Assembly: GCF_002302565.1 (NCBI RefSeq)
Contig: NZ_CP022382.1
Location: 1,435,001-1,499,000 of the forward strand
Source of the DNA: Capnocytophaga canimorsus
GTDB taxonomy: Bacteria; Bacteroidota; Bacteroidia; Flavobacteriales; Flavobacteriaceae
DNA length: 64,000 bases
Direction of reading: 5' to 3'
Part shown: piece by piece, positions 43,396 through 64,000 of the stretch
Position numbering within the stretch: position 1 is the stretch's first letter
How the letters are laid out: every line of letters starts with the position of its first letter
The notes under the pieces: model-generated
The model's database searches: none
What the model was told of the DNA's origin: nothing
Seen by the model: the letters and a program-made list of their open reading frames with translations, nothing else
Position numbers and translations under genes: made by a program

Positions 43396-43400
43396 TTAAT

Positions 43401-43506
43401 TATGAACTACGAGAACCAATTACGAATTACGAGAGTCAATTACGAATTACGGCTCTAACTTTCGTAATTCGTAATTCGAAATTTGTAATTTAAAATTCGC
43501 AATTCA
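43401..43506. repeat. Short-word repeat array A, downstream of the four-helix-bundle gene
   Basis: Two to three units of AATTACGAATTACG with spacers GAGAGTC and GAGAACC, closed by GGCTCTAACTTTC and then inverted words GTAATTCGTAATTCG. The ordering is the same as in array B on the other side of the gene, and the GCTCTAACTTTCGTAATT segment is shared. The array lies between the stop of the four-helix-bundle gene and the GH97 start. Confidence 0.9.
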
Positions 43507-43509
43507 TTA

Positions 43510-43872
43510 TTATGTTTTTAGTTTATTTTTAATTGTTATTTGTATTTTCCCAATGATTTTAGCTATTTCTTTGGCGTCGTTTAGCAAACTGATACTTTGT
43601 TCTTCTGTGAGAAAATCGGTTGCTTCTAATAATCGTAGCCAATATATCGTTTCTCGAGTTTCTTTATAAGCAATACTTATCTTTGATAAAAAATCTTTAT
43701 CCGATTGTGCTCCAATAGCTTCTTCAACATTTGCCCCAATTGATGTGCCACACCTCAGCAACTGCTTCGACAAAACCCGTTCGTTATACTCTGAAACTAT
43801 ATAACGATATACATTCACAATCCGAACTGCAAAAGCAAATGTTTTCTCTTGAATGATATTGTCTTTCCTCAT
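43510..43872 (-). CDS. Four-helix-bundle protein (Avd/IVP-like, TIGR02436 type)
   Basis: 120 residues, all alpha. Family signs: LLRCGTSIGANVEEAIGAQSDKDFLSK in the second half of the bundle (quoted as RCGTSIGANVEEA) and a helix with KETRETIYWLRLL. Relatives occur as 23S rRNA intervening-sequence proteins and as the Avd accessory protein of diversity-generating retroelements; Avd binds nucleic acid. No reverse transcriptase is near. The gene is bracketed by arrays A and B and sits inside the sugar operon with no role in sugar use. Confidence 0.85.
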   Translation of the reverse strand: MRKDNIIQEKTFAFAVRIVNVYRYIVSEYNERVLSKQLLRCGTSIGANVEEAIGAQSDKDFLSKISIAYKETRETIYWLRLLEATDFLTEEQSISLLNDAKEIAKIIGKIQITIKNKLKT

Positions 43873-43887
43873 CTTAACACTTAAATT

Positions 43888-44096
43888 AATTACGAATTAC
43901 GGAACCAATTACGAATTACGAGAACCAATTACGAATTACGGAATCAATTACGAATTACGAGAATTAATTACGAATTACGAGAATTAATTACGAATTACGA
44001 GAATCAATTACGAATTACGGAACCAATTACGAATTACGGCTCTAACTTTCGTAATTTGTAATTCGTAATTTGTAATTTAAAAATCGAAATCCGTAA
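43888..44096. repeat. Short-word repeat array B, upstream of the four-helix-bundle gene
   Basis: Eight units beginning at 43888, 43907, 43927, 43946, 43966, 43986, 44006 and 44025. Each unit is AATTACGAATTACG plus a 5-6 base spacer that is either GAACC/GAATC or AGAAYY, giving 19- and 20-bp spacing. The last unit runs into GGCTCTAACTTTC and then inverted words (GTAATTTGTAATTCG), so the end can fold with 13-base arms. The array fills the gap between two genes completely. Confidence 0.93.
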
Positions 44097-45509
44097 TTAT
44101 TTTGAAATTGACCAAACCCCATAGCTATTTGCTCCCACCGTGATGGTTACCTTTCCGTTAGCATCGGTGACAGGACGTGTGGCACTCTGTTGGGTATAAT
44201 CTATCAAAGTTTTGTTTTTCCAATGTGTAGGAATGGTACGCGTAGCAGGGGCATTTCCACTGTTGAGGAAAAGCATCAATCCAGGGCTGTTTTCATCGCC
44301 TAAACGGAAATCAATAAATTCGGTATCGGAAGCCAAATAGAATTTCTCCTCGCCTACGGCCAAACTACGGTGAATGAGTAACAGATTCTGTATTTTGGCT
44401 TTGAATTCATCATTTTCGTAATCCGAAATAAAAATAGTTGGATAGCCGCTATGGGTGAGCATATAGGCATACGCCAAGAGTTTTCGTTCTTTACTGATTA
44501 TATTATCAAGATTTTTGTCTTTCTCGGTATCGTGATTAGCAACGAAAGTAACCGCCTTATCAGGATAGATGGTTCGAAGCATTTGGTTGCCCATTAAGTG
44601 TCGCATATCATTTTTGTCCAAAGCCTGTTCCAATTTATAGAAACACGCAAAGTCAAAAGCCGGAACTCCTCCGCTTTCATCTACCCAATTTTTGAGCTTT
44701 TGAGCGTCGCCGTCCCAATATTCTCCTACGGCAAAGCCCCCTACCGAAGCCATCCAATCTTTCACTACCCAAGCGCCAAAACTTTTGACATAATCGAAAC
44801 GCCATCCGTCAAATTTCATTGTGTTTTTGTAATATTTGGCTACAGACTCATCCGATTTCCAAAGCCAATTCTGTACATATTCCTTATGATGGCAGAGGTC
44901 TTGTTCTGAAAAGAAATCAGCAGCTTCATCACAACAATGGTAATCATTCGGATGGAAGTCCAAATGACTGCGGTTGAATTTTCCCGAAGCATTGCCGTGT
45001 TGCTCGTTGAACATCGTGTAAGTGTCTTTCCCACGCGTGATGTTATGTTCTAATCCGCCCCCCGAATTATGCCCCAATACCATATCGGCAATAACCTCTA
45101 AGCCGTTGTCGTGGGCTTTTTTTATTAGATTTTCCAATTCGGCACGCGAGCCAAAACGGGTCTCTACGGTGCCGTGTTGGTTATATTCGCCAAAATCAAA
45201 GTAATCCGACGGGTCATACCCCATTGAATACCCTCCTGATTGCCCCTTGGTGGCAGGTGGCAACCAAATTCGGTTTACGCCATTAGCTTTCCAATCGGTG
45301 AGTTTGGTAGCTGTCAAATTCCACCAATCGCCACGAGGTTCTACATCCCAATAAAAAGTCTGCATCATTACCCGATTGCCGTTATCCATTGCCGAGAGAT
45401 TCAGCGGAGTAACCTCCTGTGGCGGTGTGGGAGCATCGTTATTATCCTTTTTACCGCATTGAAACAGTAGCAGACTAACGAAAACCATTGTTAAAATATT
45501 TTTTTTCAT
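44097..45509 (-). CDS. GH13 alpha-amylase lipoprotein (470 residues)
   Basis: Lipoprotein signal MKKNILTMVFVSLLLFQC. A linker of Asp/Pro (DNNDAPTPPQE) then a GH13 barrel of the bacterial alpha-amylase type: MMQTFYWDVEP, VIADMVLGHN (region I), GWRFDYVKSF (II, Asp nucleophile), VGEYWDGD (III, acid/base Glu), FVANHDTEK (IV). The C-terminal beta domain ends SYGVWSISK. Placed downstream of the SusE/F-like and DUF6261-like genes, it is the best candidate for the surface amylase (SusG role), though SusG itself is larger. Confidence 0.9.
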   Translation of the reverse strand: MKKNILTMVFVSLLLFQCGKKDNNDAPTPPQEVTPLNLSAMDNGNRVMMQTFYWDVEPRGDWWNLTATKLTDWKANGVNRIWLPPATKGQSGGYSMGYDPSDYFDFGEYNQHGTVETRFGSRAELENLIKKAHDNGLEVIADMVLGHNSGGGLEHNITRGKDTYTMFNEQHGNASGKFNRSHLDFHPNDYHCCDEAADFFSEQDLCHHKEYVQNWLWKSDESVAKYYKNTMKFDGWRFDYVKSFGAWVVKDWMASVGGFAVGEYWDGDAQKLKNWVDESGGVPAFDFACFYKLEQALDKNDMRHLMGNQMLRTIYPDKAVTFVANHDTEKDKNLDNIISKERKLLAYAYMLTHSGYPTIFISDYENDEFKAKIQNLLLIHRSLAVGEEKFYLASDTEFIDFRLGDENSPGLMLFLNSGNAPATRTIPTHWKNKTLIDYTQQSATRPVTDANGKVTITVGANSYGVWSISK

Positions 45510-45519
45510 AAGTATGAAA

Positions 45520-45682
45520 TCAATTACGAATTACGAGTTACAAATTACGAATTACGGTTCTTGCCCCTTGTTACTTTTTCCTTGTTTCTTGAAACTTGGA
45601 ACTTGAAACTTGGAACTTGGAACTTGAAACTTTATCCTTTTAACTTTATCCTTGATTCTTGAAACTTGAAACTTTTCCCTTG
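45520..45682. repeat. Short-word repeat array C, upstream of the 470-residue amylase
   Basis: Two kinds of word side by side. Near the gene: CAATTACGAATTACGAG, ACAAATTACGAATTACGG (same word as arrays A and B). Further up: six or more copies of CTTGAAACTTGGAA-type units and ACTTTATCC twice. The whole gap between the amylase start and the DUF6261-like stop is made of these words. Confidence 0.88.
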
Positions 45683-45683
45683 A

Positions 45684-46361
45684 CTATTGAGTTACTTTTT
45701 TTATCTCTTCATTGATAGAATTTACCAAATTTTGATATGCTTGTATTCCTTTTACGATGGTCAAACCATTGATTAGAGTAATAAGTTTGGTAAATGTTGT
45801 TTGCATTTGGGCACGAGTGGTTTGGGTTTTGCCCACCTCAACGGCTCCTTGCTCTTGGGTGCGGTCGGTGTGAATTGAAGCAAAGGCTTCATTAACTTGT
45901 GCAAGTTGCTCAATCCATTGCTCGGCTCCGATGAGCGTTACCATAGCTTTTACTTGAGTAGCGGCTAAATCATCGAGCAGATTACGAATGATAGCCGTTT
46001 CTTCACGGAAGGATTGCTTCTGTGGTGATTTACCATATTTTTCGTTGATTAGTACCAATTTTTTAGCAGCTTCAGCCTTCTCTTTCACCGGAAAATTCAC
46101 AAATAACTTACAATGCCCAATGTAGCCCATCAGTAGTATATCGCGCTGATTGTCCAATTCGGTGATTCGTTGCGTGTACTCGCTCTTTCGCACGGGCTTT
46201 AACGAGGCTTCAAAGGCATTAAAATCTCGGTCAAAATCCGTTTTAATAGCCGTAAGTTCCAAATTAGCAAGATCTTCTTTCTCTAAAAAGTTTTTTACAT
46301 TCGCCATCACTTGGGCAAATTCCATCAGGCGAACTCTTGATAAATTATGCTTCGAAATCAT
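45684..46361 (-). CDS. DUF6261-like all-helical protein
   Basis: 225 residues, helical throughout, without signal peptide or membrane segment. Pattern RVRLMEFAQVMANVKNFLE near the start, DNQRDILLMGYIGHCKLF in the middle, ending NSINEEIKKVTQ. I believe it matches DUF6261 of Bacteroidota, sometimes labelled haemagglutinin HagB-like, but cannot check. It lies between array C and the 42-bp tandem repeat and has no obvious role in starch use. Confidence 0.6.
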   Translation of the reverse strand: MISKHNLSRVRLMEFAQVMANVKNFLEKEDLANLELTAIKTDFDRDFNAFEASLKPVRKSEYTQRITELDNQRDILLMGYIGHCKLFVNFPVKEKAEAAKKLVLINEKYGKSPQKQSFREETAIIRNLLDDLAATQVKAMVTLIGAEQWIEQLAQVNEAFASIHTDRTQEQGAVEVGKTQTTRAQMQTTFTKLITLINGLTIVKGIQAYQNLVNSINEEIKKVTQ

Positions 46362-46476
46362 ATTTTTATATTTTTTTATGTTTTTACTTGATGTTTATAG
46401 GTAAGTTTATATAATTTGTCTTCTACTTCTGTTCTTTTTAAAGTAATTTTTCTCTTTTTATTTATTACAATAGTAC

Positions 46477-46644
46477 AAAACCCACCGATCTTATGTTTTT
46501 GTACCCTTACAAAAGTGGAAATCTGCCCGATTTTATACCCTTGTTGGCTTACAACAGAGTAAAACCCACCGATTTTGTGCTTTTGTACCCTTACAAAAAT
46601 GCAAATCTGTCTGATTTTATAGATTTGTATCCTTACAAGAGGAT
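46477..46644. repeat. Four tandem copies of a 42-bp repeat
   Basis: Four 42-bp units in a row; units 1 and 3 start AAAACCCACCGAT and contain TTTTGTACCCTTACAAAA, units 2 and 4 start AAATCTG and contain CTTACAA, so the arrangement is also two 84-bp repeats. Because 42 is a multiple of three, a minus-strand frame stays open over about 100 codons with a 14-residue period (QKHKIGG), but it has no ATG, GTG or TTG start. The remainder of 46362-46837 shows nothing else. Confidence 0.9.
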
Positions 46645-60354: not shown

Positions 60355-60480
60355 TAAGAAACAAGTACCGAGTTACAAGGATAAAGTAAAAAGGAACAAG
60401 TTACAAGTACCAAGTTACAAGTACCAAGTTGCAAGTGCTAACCACTATTTACTAATTACTAATCCCTATTTTCTATTGCC
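60355..60480. repeat. Short-word repeat array D, between pgmB and the MFS gene
   Basis: Repeated words ACAAGTACCAAGTT (three times, with small changes), GTTACAAG, and GGATAAAGTAAAAAGGA, then a second kind of text ACTATTTACTAATTACTAAT. The gap is fully composed of these words. GGATAAAG is shared with arrays C and E. Confidence 0.85.
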
Positions 60481-63329: not shown

Positions 63330-63381
63330 TGAAGTGTTTTTTTGTTAAGGATAAAGGATAAAGTGGAAAGGATAAAAAATG
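63330..63381. repeat. Short-word repeat array E, downstream of the second four-helix gene
   Basis: Contains AAGGATAAAGGATAAAGTGGAAAGGATAAA (quoted as AAGGATAAAGGATAAAGT), three copies of GGATAAA. The upstream side of the same gene (63726-63760) reads TATCCTTTATACTTTTTA, the complementary words, so they are inverted. Fewer units than arrays A-D. Confidence 0.7.
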
Positions 63382-63735
63382 CTAAGTTGATTTTTTTCTC
63401 ATTTTTGAATGTATGGCACCTATAATGCTCATCAACTCCTTACTTTCTTGCTCCAAATCTTTCCAATTCCTATTATCGTCATAAATTCTAATAAGTATTC
63501 GTATCCAATAGTTTGTTTCTCTTATCTCTTTCAAGCAGATGCCAATTTTATTGGTAAAGTCGGCTTGTGATACTGCTCCTTGCGATTCTTCGTAGTTGGC
63601 TCCGACAGAAGTTGCCGACCTTATCAGCTGATGGGCAATCAATTTGTACTCAATGCCAATAGGAAGCTTTCTGACTTCGTTAATGGCTGATATGGAGAAT
63701 TCAAATAACCGATTTTGAAGGTTTATACTTTTCAC
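63382..63735 (-). CDS. Four-helix-bundle protein (Avd/IVP-like), second copy
   Basis: 117 residues from a GTG (63735); no ATG is available. Family signs: LIRSATSVGANYEESQGAVS and KEIRETNYWIRILIR, the same helices as the gene at 43510, but the sequences are otherwise divergent. It interrupts the rfb genes and, like the first copy, is bracketed by short-word repeats. An alternative start further upstream cannot be excluded. Confidence 0.83.
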   Translation of the reverse strand: MKSINLQNRLFEFSISAINEVRKLPIGIEYKLIAHQLIRSATSVGANYEESQGAVSQADFTNKIGICLKEIRETNYWIRILIRIYDDNRNWKDLEQESKELMSIIGAIHSKMRKKST

Positions 63736-63757
63736 TTTATCCTTTATACTTTTTATT

Positions 63758-64000
63758 TTATTTCCCTTTTAAAGCCTCTTTCCAATGTGAAATTGTATAA
63801 TTAAAATCGTTTTTTAGTTTTGATTTGTCCAAAACCGAATAACTTGGACGTTTTACCTTACTTGGGAACTCGCTCGACAAGCAAGGTTTAACCAGACAAT
63901 CATTCCCCGACATACGAACGATTTCGGTAGCGAAGTCGAACCACGAGCATACGCCTTCATTTGAGAAATGATACACCTCGCGTTTTTTGCACAAATCTTT
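63758..64000 (-). CDS. rfbD: dTDP-4-dehydrorhamnose reductase, C-terminal part (cut by window edge)
   Basis: The frame stays open to the last base. Visible residues HFSNEGVCSWFDFATEI and KRPSYSVLDKSKL are the C-terminal signature of RfbD, the last enzyme of dTDP-L-rhamnose synthesis. The N-terminal NADPH-binding part lies outside the window. It precedes the four-helix gene and rfbB on the same strand. Confidence 0.85.
   Translation of the reverse strand, partial: KDLCKKREVYHFSNEGVCSWFDFATEIVRMSGNDCLVKPCLSSEFPSKVKRPSYSVLDKSKLKNDFNYTISHWKEALKGK

What the first reader, a model, noticed from the sequence alone, without database searches (positions are those of the whole stretch)
43401..44096. 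Four-helix-bundle gene framed by two arrays of a 19-20-bp palindromic-word repeat
Seen: gene 43510-43872 sits between arrays A and B, which share the word AATTACGAATTACG, the GCTCTAACTTTC spacer and the inverted ending. Array B has eight units with two alternating spacer types (GGAAYC, AGAAYY). Known: this protein family includes the Avd accessory protein of diversity-generating retroelements, a nucleic-acid binder. Inference: gene and arrays form one mobile or self-maintained unit in which the protein, or an RNA from the repeats, acts on the array. The unit sits in a sugar operon without helping sugar use.
Basis: partly seen in the sequence, partly recalled or inferred. Interest (0 to 1): 0.82.

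Follow-up and report, generated by a model that had tools for sequence, protein, structure and literature searches.

The report
One-gene element with private repeat arms
A small gene of unknown function sits between two runs of a short repeated DNA word found almost nowhere else in its genome; most of its relatives, in many phyla, sit between mirrored runs of a word of their own, which looks like an unrecognised kind of tiny mobile element and a possible source of unexplained bacterial repeats.

Summary
Confirmed, and larger than reported. The gene 43510-43872(-) is a PF05635 (23S_rRNA_IVP, four-helix-bundle) gene framed by AATTACG arrays whose 14-mer occurs exactly 13 times in the genome, all within 2.2 kb here. 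This is the family's usual plan. In 78 IVP loci, mostly from other phyla, the upstream flank matches the reverse complement of the downstream flank (score >=28) in 52, against 5 of 140 other genes of the same loci and 2.3% of swapped flanks. The arms are tandem 7-nt (some 8-nt) words that differ between loci, G-rich strand upstream in 60 of 61 armed loci. Most empty junctions in related species lack arms. Both arms tend to change word together. Word and period follow the protein's lineage, partly across gene contexts. Luteimonas and Dyella arms are GGGAATC, a published unexplained heptamer. Best reading: a transposase-free one-gene mobile element whose pentameric protein recognises its own arms, with 23S rRNA intervening sequences as rRNA-resident members. 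Binding and movement are inferred. Against: no transposition was caught, arrays also occur without the gene, the period signal weakens after dereplication, and the window's own arms fold on themselves, not across the gene.

The parts
43510..43872 (-). IVP gene: four-helix-bundle protein, 120 aa, PF05635 / TIGR02436
   Evidence: PDB relative 2rld (5 chains) E=3e-33
43884..44038 (.). array B, direct part (upstream of the gene): eight AATTACGAATTACG words, 19-20 bp apart; reads (CGTAATT)n in the gene's sense
44039..44098 (.). array B, spacer GCTCTAACTTT and inverted outer heptads; folds back on the direct part
43398..43451 (.). array A, direct part (downstream side): two exact words and one degenerate unit
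43452..43505 (.). array A, spacer GCTCTAACTTT and inverted heptads next to the gene's stop
45522..45556 (.). array C: same word, no IVP gene of its own, just upstream of the alpha-amylase start; shorter here than in G002
45588..45674 (.). orphan heptad array of other words (CTTGAAA/CTTGGAA, ACTTTATCC)
60361..60477 (.). orphan heptad arrays (ACAAGTACCAAGTT, AAGGATAAAGT, ACTAACC-type words)
63421..63711 (-). second IVP gene in the window (PF05635 51 bits; start codon uncertain)
63347..63376 (.). arm of the second IVP gene, word AAGGATA
   Evidence: up/down inverted score 45
63722..63761 (.). opposite arm of the second IVP gene, the same word inverted (TTTATAC/ACTTTATCC)

Best explanation
It is one member of a widespread class of minimal mobile elements: a single PF05635 gene enclosed by two arms made of tandem repeats of a short word (7 nt, in some protein clades 8) of its own, the downstream arm being the reverse complement of the upstream one. 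Shown: the arms go with the gene in loci of most sampled phyla, their polarity is fixed, they are missing from most empty sites, the two arms tend to change word together, and word and period are associated with the protein's lineage. Inferred: the pentameric protein recognises its own words (in the arms of the RNA or of the DNA) and so marks or mobilises the element, which settles in spacers between genes, or in rRNA; the arms usually pair in the transcript and enclose the ORF in a loop, as in 23S rRNA intervening sequences that RNase III cuts out; orphan arrays of the same word are gene-less derivatives served in trans, as REPINs are by RAYTs.
For: Inverted arms (>=28): 52 of 78 wide loci against 5 of 140 control ORFs, 2.3% of 1544 swapped flank pairs and 0 of 390 shuffles. 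Arms >=24 or a clear period-7/8/9 array: 72 of 79 wide, 50 of 53 genus, 28 of 30 phylum, 12 of 12 plasmid loci, against 27 of 144 and 107 of 421 control ORFs of the wide and genus loci. Period 7 (0.400 against 0.288) and 14 stand out, 8 slightly. Polarity: upstream arm G>C in 60 of 61 armed wide loci, control genes 89 of 161. Empty sites: 14-16-nt junction without arms in 8 of 11 IVP-less sdhB sites; no recognisable arms in 13 of 14 IVP-less groEL sites. Concerted arms: in 38 independent pairs the within-element match is higher in 26, lower in 6, equal in 6, P=5e-4. Word sharing (>=20) in different contexts, different genomes: 14 of 41 pairs at 60-70% identity, 3 of 3 at 70-85% (three cyanobacterial plasmid loci), about 5% below 45%. 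Period 7/8 on the tree: 9 changes, shuffled mean 21.5. dN/dS 0.03-0.23 in 17 of 18 pairs. Cross-gene pairing in transcripts: mean 31.6 against 12.9. Orphans match their own genome's IVP flanks (25 better, 10 worse, P=0.017).
Against: No transposition was caught: no IVP pair from different genomes and different contexts reaches 85% identity, and the closest pair within one genus genome is 69%. The window's own arms give 0 cross-gene pairs in the MFE fold; each array folds on itself. After dereplication the period-tree signal shrinks (n=76: 6 changes, shuffled mean 9.5, lowest 7) and in the wide set alone it is not significant (n=38: 5, mean 6.5, lowest 4). Co-directional neighbours in the wide set, 44 of 61, hardly exceed control genes, 61 of 99. 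Word sharing is 8-13% at 50-60% identity, and between phyla it does not rise evenly; co-inheritance cannot be told from recognition. Arrays occur in G013 without any IVP match, and none was found in 80 kb of G084 with 11 IVPs. 7 of 79 wide loci show neither arms nor array. Adjacent orphan arrays counted separately are not independent.
Confidence: 0.62

Rival explanations
1. RNA insulation only: the arms are a processing hairpin. Paired in the polycistronic mRNA they are cut by RNase III, so the ORF does no harm in an operon; the protein does not read the arms.
For: At least 12 cross-gene pairs in 100 of 125 IVP transcripts against 53 of 115 controls; the IVS of Coxiella forms a 28-bp stem and is cut by RNase III in vitro (PMC4990558, passages); 47 of 51 genus loci co-directional with both neighbours against 243 of 366 control genes.
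Against: A stem alone needs no 7- or 8-nt period, no fixed G-rich polarity (60 of 61) and no period following the protein tree; the window element makes separate hairpins; outside the genus co-direction is weak.
Confidence: 0.18
2. Autoregulator: the protein ring binds the repeated words in its own leader, as TRAP binds spaced triplets (recalled), and controls its own or its neighbours' translation; the element is resident, not mobile.
For: Commonest array length 4-5 words (148 of 265 arrays, median 4.7), fitting a pentamer (2gsc and 2rld have 5 chains each); G-rich words on the leader strand.
Against: Does not explain the complementary downstream arm, the empty sites, different elements at one junction in close species or orphan arrays. 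The short-array mode is partly a detection limit.
Confidence: 0.08
3. Reverse-transcriptase partner: like Avd, the protein helps an RT copy the element or the words (DGR- or retron-like).
For: PF05635 resembles Avd of DGRs (PMC10053308, passage).
Against: No RVT_1 match in the window's genome, which has four IVPs; RT present in 40 of 90 IVP-bearing and 11 of 28 IVP-less genomes (lists compared by hand).
Confidence: 0.06
4. Coincidence of intergenic microsatellites: heptads expand by slippage in spacers, and the gene merely lives in spacers.
For: Heptad arrays occur without the gene (54 in the genus stretches; G013). In the genus, strict period-7 arrays are only about 3-fold denser beside IVPs than in other spacers (798 against 249 per Mb).
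Against: Inversion across the gene, the same word on both sides and polarity are not expected from slippage.
Confidence: 0.04

Closest known systems
23S rRNA intervening sequences (IVS) with the S23p/IVP ORF, e.g. of Coxiella
   Same: Same protein family; complementary ends; in Coxiella two to three tandem heptamers (GACAGAT), varying between strains, stand before the ORF (PMC4990558, abstract and passages).
   Different: The window element lies in a protein operon, not in an rRNA gene; a 23S core motif (recalled, up to 4 errors) was found in none of 133 wide and genus loci. Heptads as a general feature, words of each element's own and a protein-linked period are not in the passages read.
Avd accessory protein of diversity-generating retroelements
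   Same: Homologous four-helix-bundle family (PMC10053308, passage).
   Different: No RT match in this genome; a sequence search of the PDB (E up to 1) listed 2rld and one weak hit of another kind, no Avd.
REPIN/RAYT
   Same: Works alike: small intergenic hairpin repeats plus one cognate gene per type; gene-less copies elsewhere in the genome.
   Different: The RAYT transposase is another family (recalled; PMC3116915 seen only as a search listing); here the repeats are tandem 7/8-mers that enclose the gene.
Unexplained bacterial heptamer repeats: Xanthomonas GGGAATC and Nostoc GGGGAYT (PMC4692102, passages), Beggiatoaceae TAACTGA (PMC4679880, abstract and passages), cyanobacterial STRR (recalled)
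   Same: Same period, intergenic; GGGAATC forms the arms of IVP genes in Luteimonas and Dyella (L222, L223), GGGATTC, one base off, in Rhodanobacter and Dokdonella (L224, L225; L225 has no clear opposite arm).
   Different: No Xanthomonas, Calothrix or Beggiatoaceae locus was examined here. Term searches of the two papers found no S23 or four-helix; 'IVP' was not searched in them.
CRISPR adaptation modules listed with 23S rRNA IVP (PMC10910872, one figure legend)
   Same: IVP genes between cas2 and cas1 on Anabaena and Nostoc plasmids, and before cas1 in Pseudanabaena.
   Different: These too have inverted arms (scores 25, 61, 24), so insertion of an element could explain the association as well as a CRISPR function.

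Membership tests
PF05635 / TIGR02436 (23S rRNA IVP, four helix bundle) | Score over the curated cut-off | tested here: met
   92.7 bits against 33.8; 99.8 against 24
PF05635 / TIGR02436 (23S rRNA IVP, four helix bundle) | Pentamer of four-helix bundles | not testable with these tools
23S rRNA intervening sequence | Lies inside an rRNA gene | tested here: not met
   Between the GH97 and alpha-amylase genes
23S rRNA intervening sequence | Complementary ends closing the ORF in one stem | tested here: not met
   0 cross-gene pairs in the MFE of the window element, though sequence complementarity across the gene exists (inverted score 51)
23S rRNA intervening sequence | Excision by RNase III | not testable with these tools
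   needs RNA
Diversity-generating retroelement | Reverse transcriptase with TR/VR | tested here: not met
   No RVT_1 match in G000
REPIN/RAYT | RAYT (Y1-type) transposase beside the repeats | tested here: not met
   The gene between the arrays is PF05635 and the neighbours are GH97 and an amylase; the rest of the genome was not searched for RAYT
Heptad-arm element as defined here | Arms of one tandem word on both sides, inverted across the gene | tested here: met
   Inverted score 51, direct 164: both arrangements present, because each side carries both orientations
Heptad-arm element as defined here | Protein binds its own words | not testable with these tools
   needs a binding assay

The most novel reading that the evidence does not exclude
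PF05635 proteins each read, and help to propagate, a private 7- or 8-nt word whose period is set by the geometry of the protein ring; they are the hidden cause of the heptamer repeats seen for decades in Xanthomonas, cyanobacteria, Beggiatoaceae and Bacteroidota, and 23S rRNA intervening sequences are one niche of this transposase-free element class.
Probability: 0.35. Interest if true: 0.95.

Novelty: categorically new. Interest (0 to 1): 0.87.

Why it matters
It gives a very common uncharacterised protein family (PF05635: 90 of 118 sampled Bacteroidota genomes; 4884 relatives of this one protein in the protein database) a testable job, and could tie three puzzles together: what the ORF in 23S rRNA intervening sequences is for, why bacterial microsatellites so often have a 7-bp period, and how tiny elements without a transposase come to sit in so many phyla. 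A family of proteins, each paired with its own short word, would also be a ready-made set of sequence-specific binders.

Tried and rejected
Tried without result: structure prediction (not completed), so no fold comparison with Avd. RT dependence was tested and dropped. A 23S core motif was looked for in 133 wide and genus loci and not found, so no rRNA-resident member was seen here; that link rests on PMC4990558 and PMC11270868. DUF6261 as a second heptad-linked family was rejected: its loci show 41-43-bp arrays (13 of 30), and 7-bp ones only in the G002 counterpart of this window. Viral origin: only 12 loci in 2.9 million viral contigs; 10 were looked at, 6 scored >=24, some of them near-identical. 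Co-directional insertion as a general rule was dropped: strong in the genus (47 of 51 against 243 of 366), weak elsewhere (44 of 61 against 61 of 99).

Rows left out: three sub-cut-off matches (L106-L108, ~190-aa frames) were fetched but not counted, and rows of one broken gene were counted once; two genus loci at stretch ends (L054, L070) are missing from the 51; L246 (run of N) and L257 (short flank) were skipped, L257 also; of 13 plasmid loci L185 was read but not scored; pairs are from different genomes only; 4 orphans of G013 could not enter the own-genome test. Start codons of IVP genes were chosen by a simple rule (nearest ATG). 'Same context' means any homologous ORF within 2 kb (blastp 1e-8).

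Full report
What is in the window. The ORF 43510-43872(-) is a PF05635 protein. On its upstream side lies array B (43884-44098), on its downstream side array A (43398-43505). Both are built of the heptamer AATTACG: two heptads plus a 5-6-nt spacer give the 19-20-bp unit, and each array ends in inverted heptads after an 11-nt spacer. The 14-mer AATTACGAATTACG occurs exactly 13 times in the 2.41-Mb genome, all within window 43418-45556, against a chance level of about one match per window even with two mismatches allowed. A third array of the same word, without an IVP gene of its own, stands at 45522-45556. The neighbours are a GH97 enzyme and an alpha-amylase. A second PF05635 gene in the window (63421-63711) has arms of another word, AAGGATA.

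From one locus to a rule in the genus. PF05635 occurs in 18 of 20 genomes of the (unnamed) genus. I fetched 53 loci with about 7 kb on each side where available. Reading the flanks showed the same plan in most: previous stop codon, tandem 7-nt words, IVP gene, the same words reverse-complemented, next gene. The word differs from locus to locus, except among close relatives at the same junction. Scored within true spacers, the upstream spacer matches the reverse complement of the downstream spacer at >=24 in 33 of 51 IVP genes and 31 of 204 control genes with both spacers at least 40 bp, at >=30 in 23 against 7, at >=40 in 11 against 2; a period-7 array alone (score >=12) is found in 29 of 51 against 54 of 204. 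With fixed 200-bp flanks it is >=24 in 44 of 53 against 50 of 421. Strict period-7 arrays are denser beside IVPs (798 per Mb) than in other spacers (249) or coding DNA (8).

Across phyla. Thirteen plasmid loci (Cyanobacteria, Spirochaetota, Chloroflexota, Bacillota and one Bacteroidota) were opened; 12 were scored and all 12 have arms at >=24. Nostoc C052 and Dolichospermum use the same word as the window, in the same orientation ((CGTAATT)n upstream), with proteins 53% and 47% identical over the matched part. Thirty loci from other Bacteroidota have arms in 18 and arms or array in 28. Eighty named loci from genome contigs come from 20 phyla or candidate divisions, two loci being archaeal; arms >=24 were seen in 17 of the 20, arms or an array in 18, neither in the single loci of Elusimicrobiota and Latescibacterota. 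In 78 usable loci the inverted match is >=28 in 52 against 5 of 140 other ORFs of the same loci (Fisher P about 1e-24), 2.3% of 1544 mismatched flank pairs and 0 of 390 shuffles; without Bacteroidota it is 33 of 51. Direct (not inverted) matches >=28 are also commoner than in controls, 16 of 78 against 4 of 140; over all sets the inverted match is the better one in 101 loci, the direct in 24. Of periods 3 to 15 only 7 and its multiple 14 stand out strongly, and 8 slightly. In Luteimonas and Dyella the arms are GGGAATC, in Rhodanobacter and Dokdonella GGGATTC; GGGAATC is the heptamer reported as an unexplained Xanthomonas repeat (PMC4692102, passages). I did not examine a Xanthomonas locus, but the solved PF05635 structure 2gsc is a protein called XCC0516, which PMC10053308 cites as from Xanthomonas campestris.

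What the arms tell. (a) Polarity: of 61 wide loci with arms >=24 the upstream arm is the G-rich strand in 60 and the downstream arm C-rich in 59, against 89 of 161 and 69 of 160 for other genes; over all 133 armed loci G>C in 114, C>G in 14, the exceptions lying mostly in the plasmid (6 of 12) and genus (7 of 42) sets. (b) The arms come with the gene: at the sdhA-sdhB junction 8 of 11 IVP-less genomes have 14-16 nt and no arms, one (G006) has a gene-less heptad hairpin, one (G007) 109 nt of unclear origin, one (G017) another layout; upstream of groEL 13 of 14 IVP-less sites show no recognisable arms (three AT-rich junctions reach 11 on the period-7 score, and in some the upstream gene is not groES), and the window's genome has a decayed element. 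(c) Concerted change: in 38 independent pairs of elements in the same context (protein identity 50-97%) the two arms of one element match each other better than those of its partner in 26, worse in 6, equal in 6 (P=5e-4). (d) Word follows protein: in different contexts 14 of 41 pairs at 60-70% identity share a word (>=20), 3 of 3 at 70-85% (all cyanobacterial plasmids), about 5% below 45%; the antisense comparison stays at 1-5%. Between phyla, at the stricter >=24, sharing is 1.6% below 45%, 17 of 396 at 50-55%, 2 of 62 at 55-60% and 2 of 12 at 60-75%, so the rise is weak and uneven; antisense is 0.5% or less. (e) Period follows protein: 20 of 23 period-8 elements have a period-8 nearest neighbour on the tree; 9 changes against a shuffled mean of 21.5. 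With related rows removed it is 6 against 9.5, and in the wide set alone not significant; the tree rests on 123 columns with many unresolved forks.

The protein matters and has no RT partner at home. dN/dS is 0.03-0.23 in 17 of 18 close pairs (overlapping pairs, two with dS above 1); the exception, 0.47, involves a copy with a stop. Reverse transcriptases are about as frequent with IVPs (40 of 90 genomes) as without (11 of 28), and the window's genome has no RVT_1 match.

RNA level. Folded with 120 nt on each side, IVP transcripts make on average 31.6 base pairs between the two flanks, control ORFs 12.9 (125 against 115 sequences; at least 12 pairs in 100 against 53). The window element is an exception: no cross-gene pair in the best fold, each array folding on itself. 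The layout [X-X']-gene-[X-X'] also gives ~80-bp direct repeats round the gene. The sister genome G002, whose GH97 protein is 100% identical over 702 of 703 residues, has a single array and no gene at this junction. Its array begins like the outer end of the left copy here and continues like the right copy, as expected if the gene was lost by recombination between the repeats, although gain in the opposite direction could look the same.

Arrays without the gene. Heptad arrays more than 450 bp from the IVP of their stretch are common in the genus (54 in the stretches read). They match genus arms (>=28 in 39 of 54) more than arms from elsewhere (mean 20.8 of 54) or the reversed-sequence control (21). 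Those more than 2.5 kb away match the IVP flanks of their own genome better than equal numbers from other genomes (25 better, 10 worse, P=0.017); neighbouring arrays of one hairpin are counted apart there. G007 has orphans with the words of four of its own IVPs; G019 has a hairpin resembling its sdhA-sdhB word, though not significantly on its own (p 0.12-0.14). But G013, with no IVP match, has 4 arrays in 140 kb; three IVP-less genomes outside the genus have none in 240 kb; G084 with 11 IVPs has none in 80 kb. Array C also differs in length between G000 and G002.

Mechanism. The best-supported reading is a one-gene element whose protein recognises its own arms. A pentamer is the solved form of relatives (five chains in 2gsc and 2rld; 'five four-helix bundles' in a reference title seen in PMC10053308), and arrays most often hold 4-5 words (148 of 265), so one word per subunit is attractive but unproven; short arrays also lie near the detection limit. 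In the transcript the arms usually pair and isolate the ORF, the layout of 23S rRNA intervening sequences, where Coxiella has a 28-bp terminal stem, RNase III excision and two or three tandem heptamers before the ORF (PMC4990558, passages), and where IVP ORFs are also reported in insertions of 16S and 23S genes of CPR bacteria (PMC11270868, passages). How the element moves is unknown. One junction holds different IVPs in close species: the same downstream gene follows one type in G000, G004, G005 and G019 and another in G002 and G003, so turnover is real, but I caught no recent copy at two sites.

Novelty. Searches of open-access full text listed papers on heptamers and papers on IVPs; in the listings and passages I saw, none joins them apart from the Coxiella heptamers. 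Most subscription papers are not in that library, so an earlier report cannot be excluded. I rate it categorically new because rRNA location (for IVS), RT (for DGR) and RAYT (for REPIN) are each missing here; a cautious reader may prefer 'IVS generalised'.

Noticed in passing
45684-46361 and 46465-46638; loci L354-L383: DUF6261 (PF19775) is highly multi-copy in the genus: 9 matches in this genome, 29 in G003, 25 in G005, none in 6 of 20 genomes. 13 of 30 loci looked at have a 41-43-bp tandem array near the gene, of different sequence in nearly every case. A separate, unexplained repeat-linked gene family.
   Followed up: partly
L180, L182, L191: On cyanobacterial plasmids IVP genes with arms lie between cas2 and cas1, or just before cas1; the reported link of IVP to CRISPR adaptation may be element insertion.
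   Followed up: partly
L095, L096 (G009, G010): A GH97 homologue (76-78% identical) has a different, period-8 IVP element on its downstream side in two other species.
   Followed up: partly
L088 (G018): About 20 copies of AAGTGAA on one side of an IVP gene, with the other arm matching in direct rather than inverted orientation.
   Followed up: no
L116 (G006), sdhA-sdhB junction: A gene-less hairpin of heptads (AGGTAAC-type) where other species carry an IVP element.
   Followed up: no
L314-L333 (20 stretches of three genus genomes): Period-11 arrays are also frequent in the genus (G013 7.1, G007 4.3, G019 0 per 100 kb; 14 in spacers away from IVPs and none beside them); not explained.
   Followed up: no
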